DNA from: a virus
Strand: one strand, 5' to 3'
IMG/VR virus record: IMGVR_UViG_3300042907_001527
Coordinates: 40,000 to 103,999 of that record
DNA: 64,000 nt
Below the pieces are notes generated by a model. It did no database searches, was not told the origin of the DNA, and worked only from the letters and a program-made list of their open reading frames with translations. Position 1 is the stretch's first letter. The number at the start of each line of letters is the position of its first letter. The position numbers and the translations under genes were made by a program. Shown here one piece after another: positions 20,426 through 56,026 of the stretch.

Positions 20426-21955
20426 ATGAAAAAAACAGAAGAGAAAATCCAACAATTAGAGTTACAGATACTTGAAAATCACGTAACCAAAGAAAAAGAG
20501 TTGTTGATTACAGAAATGAAAAAAATCGGAATAGAGAAACTACCTTATTCCTACTCAGCCCTCAAACAGTTTATTGACCCCGAAACCATGAGTTTCCACT
20601 ACAATAAACATTACAAAGGGTATGTTGATAAACTAAACGACGCATTATCAAAGAAAAAATACGGAGATTTAGATTTAGAAAAAATAATTAAAACAATCAG
20701 TCGTTTTGATAAAACAATTCGAAACAACGCAGGTGGAGCATTTAACCACGCATTGTTTTGGAATATGTTAACTCCCGAACCAAAGAAATTAACAGGTGAA
20801 CTTTATAAAAAGATTACCAAACAGTGGGGAACATTCACAAACTTTAAAAAAGAATTTGAAAAACAAGCCAAAGACCGTTTTGGTTCAGGTTGGGTATGGT
20901 TAATTCTAACCTCTAATAATACTTTAAAGATTATGTCAACTCCAAACCAAGATAATCCATTAATGAATGTGATTGAAGGTGGTGGGTTTCCATTGTTGGG
21001 GTTAGATTTATGGGAACACGCTTATTATTTGAAGTACCGAAATAAAAGAGACGAATACATAACAAACTTTTGGAAAGTTGTTAATTGGGAATTTGTAACT
21101 AAAATGTACGAAATGAGAGTTGAAACCAAATTAACAGAATCTACCAAAATGAAACAAATATTAAGTGAGGGTAAATCTGAAATGTGTTCAAAATCTGATA
21201 ACGAATTTTACAGAATGTTATTTAACGTAAATCAAGATATTAAATGGACTTACATGAATGGTATCAATAGAATCCTTAAAGAAGTTTTTAATGAAAATTA
21301 TATTGAAGTTCCTCCCACTAATCAATTACCGGGTATTTATGATATTGAGGGACCTGGTAGGTCAGTAATTAATAAACTCAACACAAATTACACGGCGTTT
21401 TGTATTTTATTAAAAGATTTAAATCAAGTTATTACAACTATACCAAATAAAAAACCAATCACTTTTACCGATAAAACTCCCGCAGAACAGAAAAAAGAAG
21501 TTGAGAGATTTGTAAATGCGTTAGGACATTTTAAATATAGAATATTTGATAAACAAAGTTCAACATTTATTAATTTATTAAGAACCTTAACAGAAAAAAA
21601 TAATGCAGGTGATAAAAGAGAACAAATTACGTTATCAATCCTTAGAAGATTTTTTGGTCAAAATGCAAAAGTTGAGTTGGTTGGTGGGTTAGGAAATAAA
21701 AAAGATGCAATTCAAGGTGTTGATTTAGAAATATTTAAAGATGGTAAGTTACACACCGCACAAGTTAAACCATTTAGAGAAATGAAAAAAACTGAAAGTG
21801 GAATTGAATTGGAGGGTACCGCAAGTGTTAAATTATATAAAACGGATTGGATGGTTTTTCAACGAGGAAAGAATGTTTTAGTGTTTGATAAAAAACCAAA
21901 AATTGTTGGTGGTAATTTTGTTTTTCCACTTGATTCACTTTTATATAGTATATAA
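20426..21955 (+). CDS. Manganese-type superoxide dismutase fused to a PD-(D/E)XK-like nuclease domain
   Basis: Residues about 37-228 are a complete Fe/Mn superoxide dismutase. Ligands align with E. coli SodA: H58 (H26), H108 (H81, in RNNAGGAFNHALFW), D194 (D167) and H198 (H171, in LDLWEHAYYLKYRNKRDEYI, 20 residues). Y66 matches the gateway tyrosine (Y34). Q175 in STPNQDNPLM is the manganese-type position of the buried glutamine. The N-terminal 36 residues are a charged helix. The C-terminal 280 residues are unrelated to SOD; near the end they show E399, D433 (QGVDLEIF) and Q446-x-K448 (HTAQVKPF), the spacing of PD-(D/E)XK nucleases. It lies between the SNF2 helicase and a connector candidate. 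SOD converts superoxide to peroxide and oxygen; why it is tied to a DNA-cutting fold is unknown. Confidence 0.88.
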   Translation: MKKTEEKIQQLELQILENHVTKEKELLITEMKKIGIEKLPYSYSALKQFIDPETMSFHYNKHYKGYVDKLNDALSKKKYGDLDLEKIIKTISRFDKTIRNNAGGAFNHALFWNMLTPEPKKLTGELYKKITKQWGTFTNFKKEFEKQAKDRFGSGWVWLILTSNNTLKIMSTPNQDNPLMNVIEGGGFPLLGLDLWEHAYYLKYRNKRDEYITNFWKVVNWEFVTKMYEMRVETKLTESTKMKQILSEGKSEMCSKSDNEFYRMLFNVNQDIKWTYMNGINRILKEVFNENYIEVPPTNQLPGIYDIEGPGRSVINKLNTNYTAFCILLKDLNQVITTIPNKKPITFTDKTPAEQKKEVERFVNALGHFKYRIFDKQSSTFINLLRTLTEKNNAGDKREQITLSILRRFFGQNAKVELVGGLGNKKDAIQGVDLEIFKDGKLHTAQVKPFREMKKTESGIELEGTASVKLYKTDWMVFQRGKNVLVFDKKPKIVGGNFVFPLDSLLYSI

Positions 21956-48499: not shown

Positions 48500-49208
48500 A
48501 AACTTTAATCCAAAAATTTCAATATGTATTCCATCATATGAAGCAAATGGTAGAGGCGTTGAATTTATCGATAAAAATATCCAATCAATTCTTTCTCAAA
48601 CATATAAAAATATGGAAATTGTAATTTCCGACCATTCAAAAAATGATGACATTGAGAACTACATTAAAGGGTTAGGGTTAGATAATATTGTGTATTTAAG
48701 AAACACCGAGAATATTGGGTTTCCTGCTCACAATACTAATAACGCCATTAAAAATTCTAGTGGGGATTACATCAAATTGATGAATTTAGATGATTTTATT
48801 GTTGGTGAAGATACATTACAACTAATGGTTGATTTATTGTTAAATGAAGGTAAATGGGTTATCAGTGGATGTATTCATTACGATTATGGAAATGGAAGTT
48901 GGACAAATCCAATCATTCCTAGAATTGAAGGTGATGGTAGACATTTAATAAGGGGTATTAACTTTGTTGGTTGTCCAAGTGTTGGATTAATACCTCGTGA
49001 TGAATATTTTGACACTGAAGTTTTATATATGATTGATTGTGAACTTTGGTATCGTATGTTTATAAAATATGGTTATCCGGGCGTTTTAAAAGATTACAGA
49101 ATATCCGTTGGAATTGGAGACCATACATTAACCAGCCAATGGGCGTTAAAACAAAGTGATTTACTTTATAAAGATATTGAGTATTGCAATAAAAAATTTT
49201 TAATATGA
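48492..49208 (+). CDS. GT2-family glycosyltransferase
   Basis: The 238-residue GT-A protein shows SICIPSYEANGRGVEFIDKN, IVISDHSKNDD and a KLMNLDDFIVGED metal site (D100-D101), with GFPAHNTNNAIKNSSGDYIK before it. C-terminal to this is a CPSVGLIPRDEYFDTEV stretch. It is probably a glycan-building enzyme acting with its neighbours. It overlaps the aminotransferase start by 4 bases. Confidence 0.85.
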   Translation: MSENFNPKISICIPSYEANGRGVEFIDKNIQSILSQTYKNMEIVISDHSKNDDIENYIKGLGLDNIVYLRNTENIGFPAHNTNNAIKNSSGDYIKLMNLDDFIVGEDTLQLMVDLLLNEGKWVISGCIHYDYGNGSWTNPIIPRIEGDGRHLIRGINFVGCPSVGLIPRDEYFDTEVLYMIDCELWYRMFIKYGYPGVLKDYRISVGIGDHTLTSQWALKQSDLLYKDIEYCNKKFLI

Positions 49209-50362
49209 AAAACATACAATTATTTATCCCAAAATTTAGAAACGAAGAAATTTTTGAACACATGTCAACTTGTTTAGACAAGGGTTGGACAGGATTAGGA
49301 TTTAAAACCATTGAAATCGAAAATGAATGGAAATCTTACACAGGATTACCTCATGCTCATTTTATAAACTCAAATACCTCAGGTCTTCATTTAGCGGTGA
49401 AAATATTGAAGGACACAAATAAATGGTCTAATGACGATGAAATCATTACAAGTCCATTAACATTTGTATCTTCAAATCACGCAATTATGTATGAAAACTT
49501 AAAACCTATTTTTGCGGATGTAGACGAATATTTGTGTTTAGACCCCGTTTCTGTCGAATCAAAAATAACTAAAAAAACAAAGGCTATTTTGTTTATTGGT
49601 ATCGGAGGTAATACAGGTGAACTTTATAAAATTATTAATTTATGTAAAAAACATAAATTAAAGTTAATTTTGGACGCCGCTCACATGTCAGGTACATTTG
49701 CAAAAAATCCATCAACAGGTGAAGTTGAACATATTGGTCATGGTGCCGATGTAACCGTATTTAGCTTTCAGGCGGTTAAAAACTTACCAACGGCAGATTC
49801 GGGTATGGTTTGTTTTGCAAACGAGGACTATGATTCTTTAGCTAGAAAATTATCTTGGTTAGGGATTGATAAAGATACATACCAAAGAACCAACGATAAA
49901 GGAAATTATAAATGGGAATATGATTTAGTTGATGTTGGTTACAAATACCACGGAAACTCAATGATGGCTTCAATGGCGTTAGTTGGTTTAAAATATCTTG
50001 ATAAAGACAATAACAGAAGAAGAGAAATTTGTGAAAAATATGAAGAAGAATTAACCAAACATGGAATTCAAACAGTAAACAGTCACAAAGATTGTTTCTT
50101 ATCTTCAAGACACTTATTTCAAATTGTTGTTAACCAAAGAAATAAATTTATGGAGTTATTGAACTCAAGTGGAATTTATCCAGGAGTTCATTATAGGGAC
50201 AATACACACTATAAGATGTATAAATATGGATTTGGTACTTGTCCAAATTCTTTAACTATCTCCGAAAAATTAATAACATTACCATTACATATGAATTTAA
50301 CTGATGAGGATGTGAAATATGTTATAGAAAAAGTTATTGAAATAAATAAAAATTTAAATTGA
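49205..50362 (+). CDS. DegT/DnrJ/EryC1-type sugar aminotransferase
   Basis: At 385 residues this PLP enzyme has NSNTSGLHLAV, the D157 in LILDAAHMSGT that binds the pyridine ring, and FSFQAVKNLPTADSGMVCF with K192, the Schiff-base lysine. It would transfer an amino group to a 4-keto (or 3-keto) nucleotide sugar. Candidates are perosamine-type (GDP-4-keto-6-deoxymannose) or related products, given the gmd and fcl genes downstream. The acetyltransferase gene follows immediately, as expected if the amino sugar is then N-acetylated. Confidence 0.88.
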   Translation: MKNIQLFIPKFRNEEIFEHMSTCLDKGWTGLGFKTIEIENEWKSYTGLPHAHFINSNTSGLHLAVKILKDTNKWSNDDEIITSPLTFVSSNHAIMYENLKPIFADVDEYLCLDPVSVESKITKKTKAILFIGIGGNTGELYKIINLCKKHKLKLILDAAHMSGTFAKNPSTGEVEHIGHGADVTVFSFQAVKNLPTADSGMVCFANEDYDSLARKLSWLGIDKDTYQRTNDKGNYKWEYDLVDVGYKYHGNSMMASMALVGLKYLDKDNNRRREICEKYEEELTKHGIQTVNSHKDCFLSSRHLFQIVVNQRNKFMELLNSSGIYPGVHYRDNTHYKMYKYGFGTCPNSLTISEKLITLPLHMNLTDEDVKYVIEKVIEINKNLN

Positions 50363-50363
50363 T

Positions 50364-50795
50364 ATGTTAGTTATTCGTGATTTTGAAAAAAAAGACTCAA
50401 CAGAGGAGTTATTAGAAACACTTAAAGAAGTTTGGTCAGTTGATGAAATAAATGAATCAACATTAGATAAGTGGTTTAAAAACGATAATCATATGGTAAT
50501 CGCTGAGTTTGATGGTAAAATTGTTGGTTCAGCAACTTTACATTTACAACAAAAAATTATTCGTAATGGTGGTATTGCTGGATGTATTGAAGATGTTGTA
50601 GTTAGAGAGGATTACAGAGGAAATAACATTGGCGCCCAATTAATACAAGAATTAATTAAAAAGGCCGAAAATTTTGGATGTTATAAAGTAATTTTATCTT
50701 GTTTTCCCGAAAGGATTAATTTTTATAAAAAAAATGGATTTAACCAAGAATCAATAACCATGAGATTTGATTTAAAAAAAAATATAATTAAATGA
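50364..50795 (+). CDS. GNAT N-acetyltransferase, GNA1-like
   Basis: The 143-residue protein has the GNAT fold: MVIAEFDGKIVGSATLHLQQ, GIAGCIEDVVVREDYRGNNI with GAQLI (acetyl-CoA loop) and AENFGCYKVILSCFPERINF with YKKNGF. The IEDVVV-x-x-x-YRG and GCYK-x-x-L pattern is close to glucosamine-6-phosphate N-acetyltransferase (GNA1). It may acetylate a sugar amine, either glucosamine-6-phosphate or the product of the upstream aminotransferase. It begins one base after that gene and overlaps the next by 4. Confidence 0.85.
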   Translation: MLVIRDFEKKDSTEELLETLKEVWSVDEINESTLDKWFKNDNHMVIAEFDGKIVGSATLHLQQKIIRNGGIAGCIEDVVVREDYRGNNIGAQLIQELIKKAENFGCYKVILSCFPERINFYKKNGFNQESITMRFDLKKNIIK

Positions 50796-52374: not shown

Positions 52375-53157
52375 ATGGAAATTGTATCAACAAGATTGAT
52401 AGGTGGATTAGGGAACATGATGTTTCAAATCGCAACCTCCTATAGCGTTTCACTTAGAGATAATAAAGAAATGATTTGTGACACCAGGGACATGCAAATC
52501 CCTCACAAGACATATACATTTTATACCGATAATATTTTTAGAAATATTAAATTTTCGGATAGTGTAATCGATTTAAAAAATATGGGTGAAGGTGGGTTTC
52601 ACTACACACCAATACCAAAGATTGAGGGTAACATTAAATTAATTGGTCACTTCCAAAGTGAAAAATATTTTATAAACCACAAAAATGAAATACTAAAACT
52701 TTTTGAAATTGACGATATTACAAAAAATTATTTGTTAGAAAAGTACGGTGAGATTTTAAATCAAGATACTTGTTCGATTCACGTTAGACGTGGGGATTAT
52801 TTAGGTTTACAAAATCACCACCCAATCCAACCAATTGAATATTACCAAAAAGCAATTAATATTATTGGTGAAGAAAACCATTTCTTAATATTCTCTGACG
52901 ACATTAAATGGTGTGAAGAAAATTTTAGTTTCTTAAAAAATAAAACATTTGTGTCCGACAATTTAGATTACGAAGATTTGTATTTGATGTCGATGTGTAA
53001 TAATAATATATTGGCAAATTCAACATTCAGTTGGTGGGGAGCTTGGTTAAATAATAATGAAAATAAACAAGTAATAATTCCATCCAAATGGTTTGGAGTT
53101 TCCAATTCACATTTAAATACTAATGACTTATATTGTAATAAATGGATTAAATTATGA
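52375..53157 (+). CDS. GT11-family alpha-1,2-fucosyltransferase-like
   Basis: The start at 52375 (MEIVSTRLIGGLGNMMFQIA) is preferred to a TTG 12 bases earlier. The 260-residue protein carries RLIGGLGNMMFQ, CSIHVRRGDYLG, FLIFSDDIKWCEENF and the box ILANSTFSWWGAWLN, all typical of GT11. It transfers fucose or a relative from GDP-fucose to a hydroxyl group. GDP-fucose synthase and gmd genes nearby could supply the donor. It overlaps the next gene by 4 bases. Confidence 0.92.
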   Translation: MEIVSTRLIGGLGNMMFQIATSYSVSLRDNKEMICDTRDMQIPHKTYTFYTDNIFRNIKFSDSVIDLKNMGEGGFHYTPIPKIEGNIKLIGHFQSEKYFINHKNEILKLFEIDDITKNYLLEKYGEILNQDTCSIHVRRGDYLGLQNHHPIQPIEYYQKAINIIGEENHFLIFSDDIKWCEENFSFLKNKTFVSDNLDYEDLYLMSMCNNNILANSTFSWWGAWLNNNENKQVIIPSKWFGVSNSHLNTNDLYCNKWIKL

Positions 53158-54077
53158 CAGTATTAATTACAGGTTCAAACGGATTACTTGGTACCGCGTT
53201 AAAAGAATTATTAGGTGAAGGTCACATATACCACACAAGAAAAGACGCGGATTTAACCGATGAAAAATCAACTAACGATTATATAACACATCATGTTAAA
53301 AACTCAGGTGTTGATACAATAATACATTGTGCCGCAATGGTTGGTGGAGTTCAAGCAAACTCAAACAATAATGAAATTTTTTTTATTGAAAATTATAAAA
53401 TAAATAATAATGTGATTAACTCCTCATTTGAAAATAGGATTAAAAACTTTGTTAATTTATCATCCACTTGCATTTTTCCCGACACTAATATCACATACCC
53501 ATTAACCGCAGACCAAATTGATGTTGCGCCACCACATCCATCTAATCATGGATATTCTTATGCAAAAAGATTATCGGGATATCAAACAAAAATCATCAAA
53601 CAATTAACTGGTAATAATTGGATTACAATTGTACCCACAAACATATACGGACCTAACGATAACTTTCATCCAGACCATAGTCATATAATACCAGGTATTA
53701 TACACAGAGCCAATAATTACAAACAAAACAACGAAGACTTTGTGATATGGGGTGACGGAAGTCCATTAAGACAATTTATACATTCAAAAGATTTGGCAAA
53801 AGTTATTCTATGGGCAATTGATAATTGGAACAGTGAGGTTCCATTTATGGCGGTAAATGATAAAGAACATTCTGTTATGGATATTGTTAAAATTGTTGCT
53901 AAAAAATTTGGTATTCCAAATGACAAATTAATTTTTGATGAGACAAAACCAAGAGGTCAATTTAGAAAACCCGCAAAATCAGACATTCCTAAAAATTACC
54001 AATATATTAACTTAGAACAAGGAATTACCGAAACCATTGAATGGTTTATTAACAATTATAAAACACTTAGAAAATGA
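53154..54077 (+). CDS. fcl: GDP-L-fucose synthase-like epimerase/reductase
   Basis: The 307-residue short-chain dehydrogenase/epimerase has the NADP site ITGSNGLLGTAL (5-16), HCAAMVGGVQAN, the catalytic S103/S104-T-C106 (LSSTCIFPD), Y134-x3-K138 (GYSYAKRL) and an active-site His in DHSHIIPGIIHR. These are the residues of GDP-4-keto-6-deoxymannose 3,5-epimerase-4-reductase (Fcl/WcaG). It converts the gmd product to GDP-L-fucose, or a related enzyme (ColC) makes GDP-colitose from the dideoxy product. The neighbour at 54074 makes the second choice possible. Confidence 0.9.
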   Translation: MTVLITGSNGLLGTALKELLGEGHIYHTRKDADLTDEKSTNDYITHHVKNSGVDTIIHCAAMVGGVQANSNNNEIFFIENYKINNNVINSSFENRIKNFVNLSSTCIFPDTNITYPLTADQIDVAPPHPSNHGYSYAKRLSGYQTKIIKQLTGNNWITIVPTNIYGPNDNFHPDHSHIIPGIIHRANNYKQNNEDFVIWGDGSPLRQFIHSKDLAKVILWAIDNWNSEVPFMAVNDKEHSVMDIVKIVAKKFGIPNDKLIFDETKPRGQFRKPAKSDIPKNYQYINLEQGITETIEWFINNYKTLRK

Positions 54078-55234
54078 AAAGAATTGATTTAATTCAAGAC
54101 ACGATTGATAATCAAGACATTGATAATTTAATTGAATGGTTAAAATCTTACCCTCGACTAACTAAAGGGTCTAAAACAATTGAGTTTGAAAATAAATGGT
54201 CTCAATGGTTGGGGTCAAAATATTCGATATTTGTTAATTCAGGGTCATCCGCAAATTTACTTATGTTATATACCTTAAGAGTTCTTAAAAGAATGAAAAA
54301 TAATAAAGTTTGTGTTCCAACATTGTGTTGGGCGACAGACTTGGCACCGGTACTTCAATTTGATATGGAACCATTATTAATTGATTGTAATTTGGATAAT
54401 TTATCTGTCGATTTAACTCATCTTGAAGAAGTGTTTAAAACAGAACAACCGTCAGTATTACTTTTAGTTTCAGTGTTAGGTTTATCTCCTGATATGGATT
54501 CTATTATTGAGTTATGTAAAAAGTATGATGTTATCTTACTTGAGGATAATTGTGAATCACAAGGAACTAAATTTAAAGGGACCAAACTTGGTAACTTTGG
54601 ATTAATGTCATCCTTCTCCACTTATTTTGGACACACAATGTCCACAATTGAGGGCGGAGTCATTTCAACAAACAATGAAGAGATTTATAACACTTTGTTG
54701 CAACTTAGAAGTCATGGTTGGGATAGAGATTTATCTTCAGAAAAACAACAAGAATTAAGAGAGGAATGGGGAGTAAGTAATTTTTCAGCATTATATACTT
54801 TTTACGTACCAGGGTTTAACGTAAGAAGTACTGATTTACAAGCACAAATTGGTATCAAACAATTGGATAAGGTTGATGGGATGATTAATAATCGATATGA
54901 AAACTTTTTGTATTACAAATCTAAGTTAGAAGGTAAAACATGGTTCCCAAAAACTTTTGATGATAGTTATACTTCAAATTTTGCGATTCCATTTATCACC
55001 AAAACTATTGAAGATAAAGAAACTTTAATTAAAGAATTAAGCGAAAATAACATCGCATGTCGGCCATTAATTTCAGGTTCTATGGGAACTCAACCATTCT
55101 ACAAAAAATTATACGGAGAGAACAAATTACCTAAATGTTCAATTATAGACGAGAGAGGGGTATATGTCCCAAATCATGATAAAATGACTAAAGAGGATAT
55201 TGACAGAGTTTGTGATATCTTATTAAAATATTAA
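54074..55234 (+). CDS. DegT-family 3-dehydratase-like protein (His in place of PLP lysine, ColD-like)
   Basis: The 386-residue PLP protein keeps D158 (VILLEDNCESQG), NSGSSANLLMLY and GWDRDLSSEK, but the Schiff-base lysine position is histidine: FSTYFGHTMSTIEGGVIST has H187 seven residues before EGG. Such a Lys-to-His change marks the ColD/RfbH-type dehydratases, which remove the 3-hydroxyl of a 4-keto-6-deoxysugar (E. coli ColD His188) instead of moving an amino group. With gmd and the fcl-like gene it suggests GDP-colitose or another GDP-dideoxysugar. The 3-D site cannot be checked here. Confidence 0.85.
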   Translation: MKRIDLIQDTIDNQDIDNLIEWLKSYPRLTKGSKTIEFENKWSQWLGSKYSIFVNSGSSANLLMLYTLRVLKRMKNNKVCVPTLCWATDLAPVLQFDMEPLLIDCNLDNLSVDLTHLEEVFKTEQPSVLLLVSVLGLSPDMDSIIELCKKYDVILLEDNCESQGTKFKGTKLGNFGLMSSFSTYFGHTMSTIEGGVISTNNEEIYNTLLQLRSHGWDRDLSSEKQQELREEWGVSNFSALYTFYVPGFNVRSTDLQAQIGIKQLDKVDGMINNRYENFLYYKSKLEGKTWFPKTFDDSYTSNFAIPFITKTIEDKETLIKELSENNIACRPLISGSMGTQPFYKKLYGENKLPKCSIIDERGVYVPNHDKMTKEDIDRVCDILLKY

Positions 55235-55237
55235 TAT

Positions 55238-56026
55238 ATGTTAAAATTCTTTAAACCTCCAAGAGATAGTGGAACTCATCAACGGGGATATTTTTCATAT
55301 ATTACCGAAGCGGTTGTCCATATACATAATGTATTATTAAATCACCCAAATGAAAAATTAAAAATTTATTATGACCTGTCTAATATTCAGGGATATGGTA
55401 ATCAAAACATTTACGAGGCGTGTTTCATTCAAGATGAAAATGATTACTTAACCAATATTAATGAATATTCTAATATTGAATTGGTTAATTATATATCAAA
55501 ATTAAATGCTTATGAAAGTGAGACACTTACTGAAGAAAATTTAAAAATGTGTGAATCAATAATTAAAGACAATTTTATTTTAAACGATGAAATGAAACAA
55601 TTATTATCATCAAGACATTCTCAAATTGATTTTACAAAAACAATAGGGTTCCATAGAAGAGCTACTGATATGGCAACAGTACATAACCTATCAACTATAG
55701 ATTTATCAGATATCTTTAATATATTAGAACAAGAAGAATTTGAAAACGTGTTTTTAATGTCAGACAATTTAAAAGATTTAAATGAATTCAAAAAAAGATA
55801 CGGAAACAAATTAATCACTTTTGATGAATTTACATCATCAAAATTTGATGATAACCCATTTTTTAAAGTCGAGAATGATGAGGAGTCAATTAAACAACAT
55901 ATACGAGAGATTGTTTTTGGGGCCTATACATTAGGGATGACAAAAAAGTTGATTTGTACTAAATCAAATTTATCTACCTTCTCAATATTTTCAAACTCAA
56001 AATTAAATTACAAAAGATTAAATTAA
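55238..56026 (+). CDS. Fucosyltransferase-like protein of the O-FucT/alpha-1,6 superfamily
   Basis: The 262-residue protein has TIGFHRRATDMAT (the GDP-sugar binding H-x-R-R-x-T-D box, about 136-148), FENVFLMSDNLKDLNEFKKR and a late LICTKSNLSTFSIFSNS segment, the three motifs shared by alpha-1,6- and protein O-fucosyltransferases. The N-terminal part (FKPPRDSGTHQRGYFSYITE) is unlike the known enzymes. It probably uses GDP-fucose or the dideoxysugar made by its neighbours. It abuts both flanking genes. Confidence 0.6.
   Translation: MLKFFKPPRDSGTHQRGYFSYITEAVVHIHNVLLNHPNEKLKIYYDLSNIQGYGNQNIYEACFIQDENDYLTNINEYSNIELVNYISKLNAYESETLTEENLKMCESIIKDNFILNDEMKQLLSSRHSQIDFTKTIGFHRRATDMATVHNLSTIDLSDIFNILEQEEFENVFLMSDNLKDLNEFKKRYGNKLITFDEFTSSKFDDNPFFKVENDEESIKQHIREIVFGAYTLGMTKKLICTKSNLSTFSIFSNSKLNYKRLN

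What the first reader, a model, noticed from the sequence alone, without database searches (positions are those of the whole stretch)
54074..55234. ColD-type histidine in a phage DegT-family enzyme
H187 replaces the PLP lysine at the position used by 3-dehydratases, while the paralogue at 49205 keeps K192. The pair would catalyse different reactions on the same 4-keto sugar: loss of the 3-hydroxyl and amination.
Basis: partly seen in the sequence, partly recalled or inferred. Interest (0 to 1): 0.6.

Follow-up and report, generated by a model that had tools for sequence, protein, structure and literature searches.

The report
Phage ColD-type sugar 3-dehydratase cassette
This phage gene very probably encodes an enzyme that strips one oxygen from an activated sugar, as part of a gene set matching the one bacteria use to make and attach the rare sugar colitose; the enzyme type is known, but phage genes of this type are labelled simply "aminotransferase" in current records.

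Summary
ORF 54074-55234 is a DegT-family protein whose H187 lies in the column of the PLP lysine. It aligns with His188 of E. coli ColD; the PDB mutants H188N and H188K fall in the same column. H187 is invariant in 88 of 88 viral sequences compared. The protein groups with ColD and RfbH, apart from all lysine-type relatives. It lacks the RfbH iron-sulphur cysteines, and the best 12 structural matches are all ColD. The context fits: Fcl/ColC-like and ColD genes overlap by 4 nt and lie with GT11 and Gmd genes, the same set, with the same overlap, as in the colitose cluster of E. coli O55. Gmd lies within 6 kb of 70 of 80 viral relatives; CDP-glucose dehydratase near none. Most likely product: GDP-L-colitose. 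Verdict: a real, intact new member of the ColD kind in a likely phage colitose cassette; cyanophages S-CAM7 and ACG-2014f carry it under generic labels.

The parts
54074..55234 (+). ColD-like GDP-4-keto-6-deoxymannose 3-dehydratase (386 aa); catalytic His187 codon at 54632-54634
   Evidence: PDB best ColD 209 bits, H187 in the H188 column; tree; no FeS cysteines; AF2 pLDDT 96.4, Foldseek ranks 1-12 all ColD
53154..54077 (+). GDP-L-fucose synthase / ColC-like epimerase-reductase (307 aa); overlaps the ColD gene by 4 nt (ATGA, 54074-54077)
   Evidence: NF047922 181 bits; 34% to E. coli O55 ColC, 29% to E. coli Fcl; STC, YSYAK and SH motifs read from the sequence; same overlap in E. coli O55
52375..53157 (+). 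GT11 glycosyltransferase, candidate colitosyl/fucosyltransferase; overlaps the Fcl/ColC gene by 4 nt
   Evidence: PF01531 93 bits; 30% to the GT11 of the E. coli O55 cluster, which is also PF01531
56028..57008 (+). GDP-mannose 4,6-dehydratase (Gmd), source of GDP-4-keto-6-deoxymannose
   Evidence: TIGR01472 405 bits, just under the 415 cut-off; 47% to E. coli O55 Gmd; PDB best GDP-mannose 4,6-dehydratases
55238..56026 (+). 262 aa protein of unknown family between ColD and Gmd; IGFHRRATD recalls the HxRRxD motif of GDP-fucose transferases (lead only)
   Evidence: conserved in place in several relatives; no Pfam, PHROG or PDB match
49205..50362 (+). K192 DegT-family sugar aminotransferase paralogue; substrate undetermined
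   Evidence: ArnB 245 bits against PerA 177 bits with profile A3; present in a minority of relatives
50364..50795 (+). GNAT acetyltransferase next to the K-type transaminase (possible N-acylation of its amino sugar)
   Evidence: PF00583 72 bits; follows the K-type gene in L003/L004

Best explanation
54074-55234 encodes a ColD-type, PMP-dependent GDP-4-keto-6-deoxy-D-mannose 3-dehydratase. Gmd (56028) turns host GDP-mannose into GDP-4-keto-6-deoxymannose. The sugar forms a Schiff base with PMP. His187, replacing the lysine, takes a proton from the cofactor and the 3-hydroxyl is expelled. Hydrolysis and loss of ammonia give GDP-4-keto-3,6-dideoxymannose, and glutamate restores PMP. The overlapping Fcl/ColC-like enzyme (53154) then epimerises C5 and reduces C4 to GDP-L-colitose, which the GT11 enzyme (52375) attaches to a glycan during infection. 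Shown here: residue position, family, fold, absent iron-sulphur cysteines, operon, conservation, purifying selection. Inferred: catalysis, substrate, colitose as end product, and the glycan target (host surface or virion).
For: ColD is the best solved relative by sequence (7.6e-61) and fold (ranks 1-12). H-type rows are one side of a fully supported branch (SH-aLRT 100; 101 rows) against the K-type, with ColD and RfbH among them. H187 in 88/88. RfbH Cys251, 253 and 261 have no Cys counterpart; only Cys193 is shared, and ColD has that too. The residue before the His is G186 (Ser in ColD, Asn in PerA); ColD S187N/H188K is in the PDB (3gr9). Near 80 viral relatives: Gmd 70, Fcl 56, GT11 47, CDP-glucose dehydratase 0. 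E. coli O55 has gmd, manC, manB, GT11 and colC-colD with the same 4-nt overlap. dN/dS 0.035-0.084. ColD chemistry: review PMC8987622.
Against: Only 33% identical to E. coli ColD; it lies in a sister clade, not inside the clade of E. coli ColD. The Fcl/ColC-like protein groups with eukaryote-type GDP-fucose synthase, not with E. coli ColC, so its colitose role rests on operon position. T188 replaces the second His of the HH pair (T 41, H 44, I 3 of 88), effect unknown. Part of the wider H-type sister clade is not near Gmd, so substrate can differ. No assay.
Confidence: 0.72

Rival explanations
1. A true GDP-sugar 3-dehydratase, but the product is not colitose: Fcl and GT11 make and attach L-fucose in parallel, and the 3,6-dideoxy sugar goes elsewhere (for example reduction without C5 epimerisation).
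For: Fcl groups with GDP-fucose synthases rather than ColC. Some relatives have ColD and Gmd without Fcl, several with an RmlC-like gene instead. WbgN accepts both GDP-colitose and GDP-fucose (PMC12723683).
Against: GT11-Fcl-ColD is a conserved unit with 4-nt overlaps in the near relatives, and the same ColC-ColD overlap is found in E. coli O55. No other SDR reductase related to Gmd was seen in the record.
Confidence: 0.2
2. An aminotransferase despite the His, as database labels say.
For: Pfam PF01041 and PHROG 3139 call it aminotransferase. SpnQ transaminates when no reductase is present (PMC8987622).
Against: No lysine for transaldimination at that column; ColD and E1 showed no transaminase activity under similar conditions (PMC8987622). 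Gly186 instead of the Asn of PerA, and all other ColD-type residues kept.
Confidence: 0.03
3. An E1/SpnQ-type iron-sulphur 3-dehydratase acting on a CDP- or dTDP-sugar.
For: The catalytic His is shared with RfbH; the family sits beside RfbH in the tree.
Against: Three of four cluster cysteines missing; no CDP-glucose dehydratase within 6 kb of any of 80 viral relatives; ColD preferred over E1 by 95 bits.
Confidence: 0.02
4. A decayed or moonlighting homologue without enzyme activity.
For: No activity data; T188 departs from the ColD HH motif.
Against: dN/dS 0.035-0.084 with the catalytic residues invariant.
Confidence: 0.03

Closest known systems
E. coli O55 ColD (WbdK), GDP-4-keto-6-deoxymannose 3-dehydratase
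   Same: Catalytic His in the lysine column, no iron-sulphur cysteine set, same fold, gene overlapping a Fcl/ColC gene by 4 nt, Gmd and GT11 in the same cluster
   Different: 33% identity; sister clade; T188 instead of the second His; no manB/manC beside it; phage-borne
Cyanophages S-CAM7 and ACG-2014f: gmd, Fcl-like, DegT, glycosyltransferase run
   Same: Same gene set with the H-type DegT, annotated as epimerases and aminotransferase
   Different: 32-34% identical DegT in another subclade; different Fcl lineage
RfbH / E1 CDP-4-keto-6-deoxyglucose 3-dehydratase
   Same: Catalytic His, same superfamily side of the tree
   Different: Carries iron-sulphur cysteines and has CDP-glucose genes beside it
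PerA GDP-perosamine synthase
   Same: Same fold and presumed nucleotide sugar
   Different: Lysine instead of His; the window's K paralogue is nearer ArnB than PerA

Membership tests
ColD-type 3-dehydratase | Histidine in place of the PLP lysine | tested here: met
   H187 in the H188 column, invariant in 88/88 of the viral set
ColD-type 3-dehydratase | No [2Fe-2S] cysteine set | tested here: met
   RfbH C251, C253, C261 lack Cys counterparts; C193 shared with ColD
ColD-type 3-dehydratase | ColD fold and best match among solved structures | tested here: met
   pLDDT 96.4; ranks 1-12 all ColD, TM 0.88-0.91
ColD-type 3-dehydratase | Falls inside the clade of characterised E. coli ColD (not a functional requirement) | tested here: not met
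   Sister clade to the ColD clade, within the ColD-like group that excludes RfbH
ColD-type 3-dehydratase | Removes the 3-OH of GDP-4-keto-6-deoxymannose with glutamate regenerating PMP | not testable with these tools
   Needs an assay
GDP-L-colitose pathway | Gmd, ColD and ColC-type genes together | tested here: inconclusive
   Gmd and ColD-like present; the ColC role filled by a Fcl-like protein of another lineage
RfbH/E1 3-dehydratase | Four iron-sulphur cysteines | tested here: not met
PerA-type aminotransferase (this ORF) | PLP lysine | tested here: not met
   H187
PerA (paralogue at 49205) | PerA as nearest characterised relative | tested here: not met
   ArnB 245 bits, PerA 177 bits; tree groups it with ArnB

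The most novel reading that the evidence does not exclude
The two DegT enzymes act in series: H187 makes GDP-4-keto-3,6-dideoxymannose and the K192 enzyme aminates that, giving GDP-3-deoxyperosamine, N-acylated by the adjacent GNAT: a 4-amino-3,4,6-trideoxy sugar made by a phage.
Probability: 0.07. Interest if true: 0.5.

Novelty: new member of a known kind. Interest (0 to 1): 0.34.

Why it matters
Phage H-type enzymes are common (339 relatives in one IMG/VR scan) but are lumped with true aminotransferases in PHROG 3139 and in deposited genomes, so their likely product, a 3,6-dideoxy surface sugar, goes unseen. If right, phages carry the synthesis of a rare O-antigen-type sugar, which could change the host surface or the virion. 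Two named cyanophages carry the cassette and make it testable.

Tried and rejected
AF2 of the K paralogue: mean pLDDT 61.5 with 8 sequences, not used. Fcl phylogeny as proof of ColC function: failed, several Fcl lineages sit next to ColD-like genes. Family of the 262 aa protein at 55238: no match in Pfam, PHROG or PDB. Megablast of the window's 24 kb right part against phage records: only one 88-base match, in a gmd. Literature: 13 held papers contain both 'colitose' and 'phage'; by title and abstract none is about a phage colitose pathway, but only those were read and most subscription papers are not held. A nucleotidyltransferase (PF00483) in the record: none, so GDP-mannose must come from the host or from genes missing in this incomplete record.

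Full report
OBSERVATION. The ORF at 54074-55234 encodes a complete 386-residue PF01041 protein. Its residue 187 is histidine. In the alignment to the solved structures H187 falls in the column of ColD His188, where the mutant chains carry Asn (3b8x, H188N) and Lys (2r0t). PerA Lys, ArnB Lys and RfbH His220 share the column in an independent alignment, and the paralogue at 49205-50362 has K192 there.

NOT CHANCE. All 95 ColD-like and 6 RfbH-like sequences compared have His, as do 88 of 88 sequences in the viral set. Selection is purifying (dN/dS 0.035-0.084 against phage relatives). The tree puts 101 His-type rows on one side of a branch with SH-aLRT 100, apart from PerA, ArnB and the window's K paralogue. 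Many viral loci are near-duplicates from different assemblies, so counts are of loci, not of independent events.

WHICH 3-DEHYDRATASE. E1/RfbH and SpnQ use a [2Fe-2S] cluster; ColD does not and regenerates PMP with glutamate (PMC8987622). Three of the four RfbH cysteines have no Cys counterpart here. The predicted structure (pLDDT 96.4) matches ColD in ranks 1-12, ahead of PseC and PerA, with E1 at rank 23. The protein is 33% identical to E. coli ColD and lies in a sister clade to the characterised ColD clade. One departure: ColD has His-His, the window enzyme His-Thr; in the viral set the second position is T in 41, H in 44 and I in 3. Its meaning is unknown.

CONTEXT. Upstream genes are a GT11 transferase and a GDP-fucose-synthase/ColC-like enzyme, each overlapping the next by 4 nt; downstream are an unknown protein and Gmd. 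GT11-Fcl-ColD stays together in the near relatives. Among the 80 best viral relatives Gmd is within 6 kb in 70, Fcl-like in 56, GT11 in 47, CDP-glucose dehydratase in none. The E. coli O55 cluster shows gmd, manC, manB, a GT11 (PF01531) and a Fcl-family gene overlapping ColD by 4 nt. The E. coli O55 enzyme WbgN is an alpha-1,2-colitosyltransferase that also accepts GDP-fucose (PMC12723683); equating it with this GT11 gene is my reading of the cluster. Gmd is the only 4,6-dehydratase found in the 104 kb record and no NTP transferase was found.

LIMITS. The window's Fcl/ColC-like protein is 34% identical to E. coli ColC and 29% to E. coli Fcl, but in the tree it joins a eukaryote-type GDP-fucose synthase. 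Its colitose role is inferred from position. Some relatives replace it with an RmlC-like gene. Parts of the His-type sister clade are not near Gmd at all, for example in Opitutae, so substrate cannot be read from the family alone.

THE PAIR. The K192 paralogue is closer to ArnB than PerA. A K-type DegT is within 6 kb of only 14 of 80 His-type loci, close orthologues in 7 (two more, L003/L004, have it slightly further away). Conversely 10 of 11 close K orthologues lie by the cassette. So the K enzyme seems an optional addition to the cassette; its substrate is open. PerA has been solved with GDP-3-deoxyperosamine bound (3dr7), so serial action is chemically plausible, and is given as the novel case.

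HOST AND VIRUS. G000 is an incomplete IMG/VR virus record. Baseplate wedge, UvsX-like, DnaB-like, weak late-sigma and ribonucleotide reductase matches suggest a large T4-like myovirus; no named close relative or host was found.

KNOWN. AMG surveys already list gmd, fcl, ddhC/rfbH and per/rfbE in viral metagenomes (PMC10653327), and cyanophage S-SCSM1 has gmd, fucose synthase and alpha-1,2-fucosyltransferase (PMC9602691). S-CAM7 and ACG-2014f carry the same cassette with generic labels. The novelty is thus a likely complete phage colitose route and a mislabelled family, not a new enzyme kind.

Noticed in passing
20426-21955: 509 aa phage protein whose residues about 36-229 match superoxide dismutase (roughly 37-48% identity); the rest is unmatched.
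   Followed up: no
L027 7978-11891; L028 4013-7867: Cyanophages ACG-2014f and S-CAM7 carry gmd, Fcl-like, His-type DegT and GT11-like genes in a row, labelled nucleotide-sugar epimerase, aminotransferase and glycosyltransferase.
   Followed up: partly
54074-55234 and 49205-50362: PHROG 3139 'aminotransferase' takes in both the His-type dehydratase and the Lys-type transaminase.
   Followed up: yes
55238-56026: Unknown 262 aa protein between ColD and Gmd with IGFHRRATD, reminiscent of the HxRRxD motif of GDP-fucose transferases; no profile match.
   Followed up: partly
L149, L152, L153, L158, L159, L166, L167, L169, L170, L178: Viral loci with ColD-like and Gmd genes but an RmlC-like 3,5-epimerase in place of Fcl: possibly a different 3,6-dideoxy product.
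   Followed up: no
L090 2260-7849: Pelagibacteraceae contig with CDP-glucose dehydratase-like, K-type DegT and His-type DegT genes adjacent: a His/Lys pair in a CDP-sugar context.
   Followed up: no
L026 7941-9110 and 15478-16800: A huge uncultured phage record (642 kb) carries both a ColD-like and an RfbH-like gene.
   Followed up: no
L037, L039, L041-L050, L065: Mostly Opitutae/Verrucomicrobia subclade of His-type enzymes mostly without Gmd or Fcl beside it; substrate unknown.
   Followed up: no
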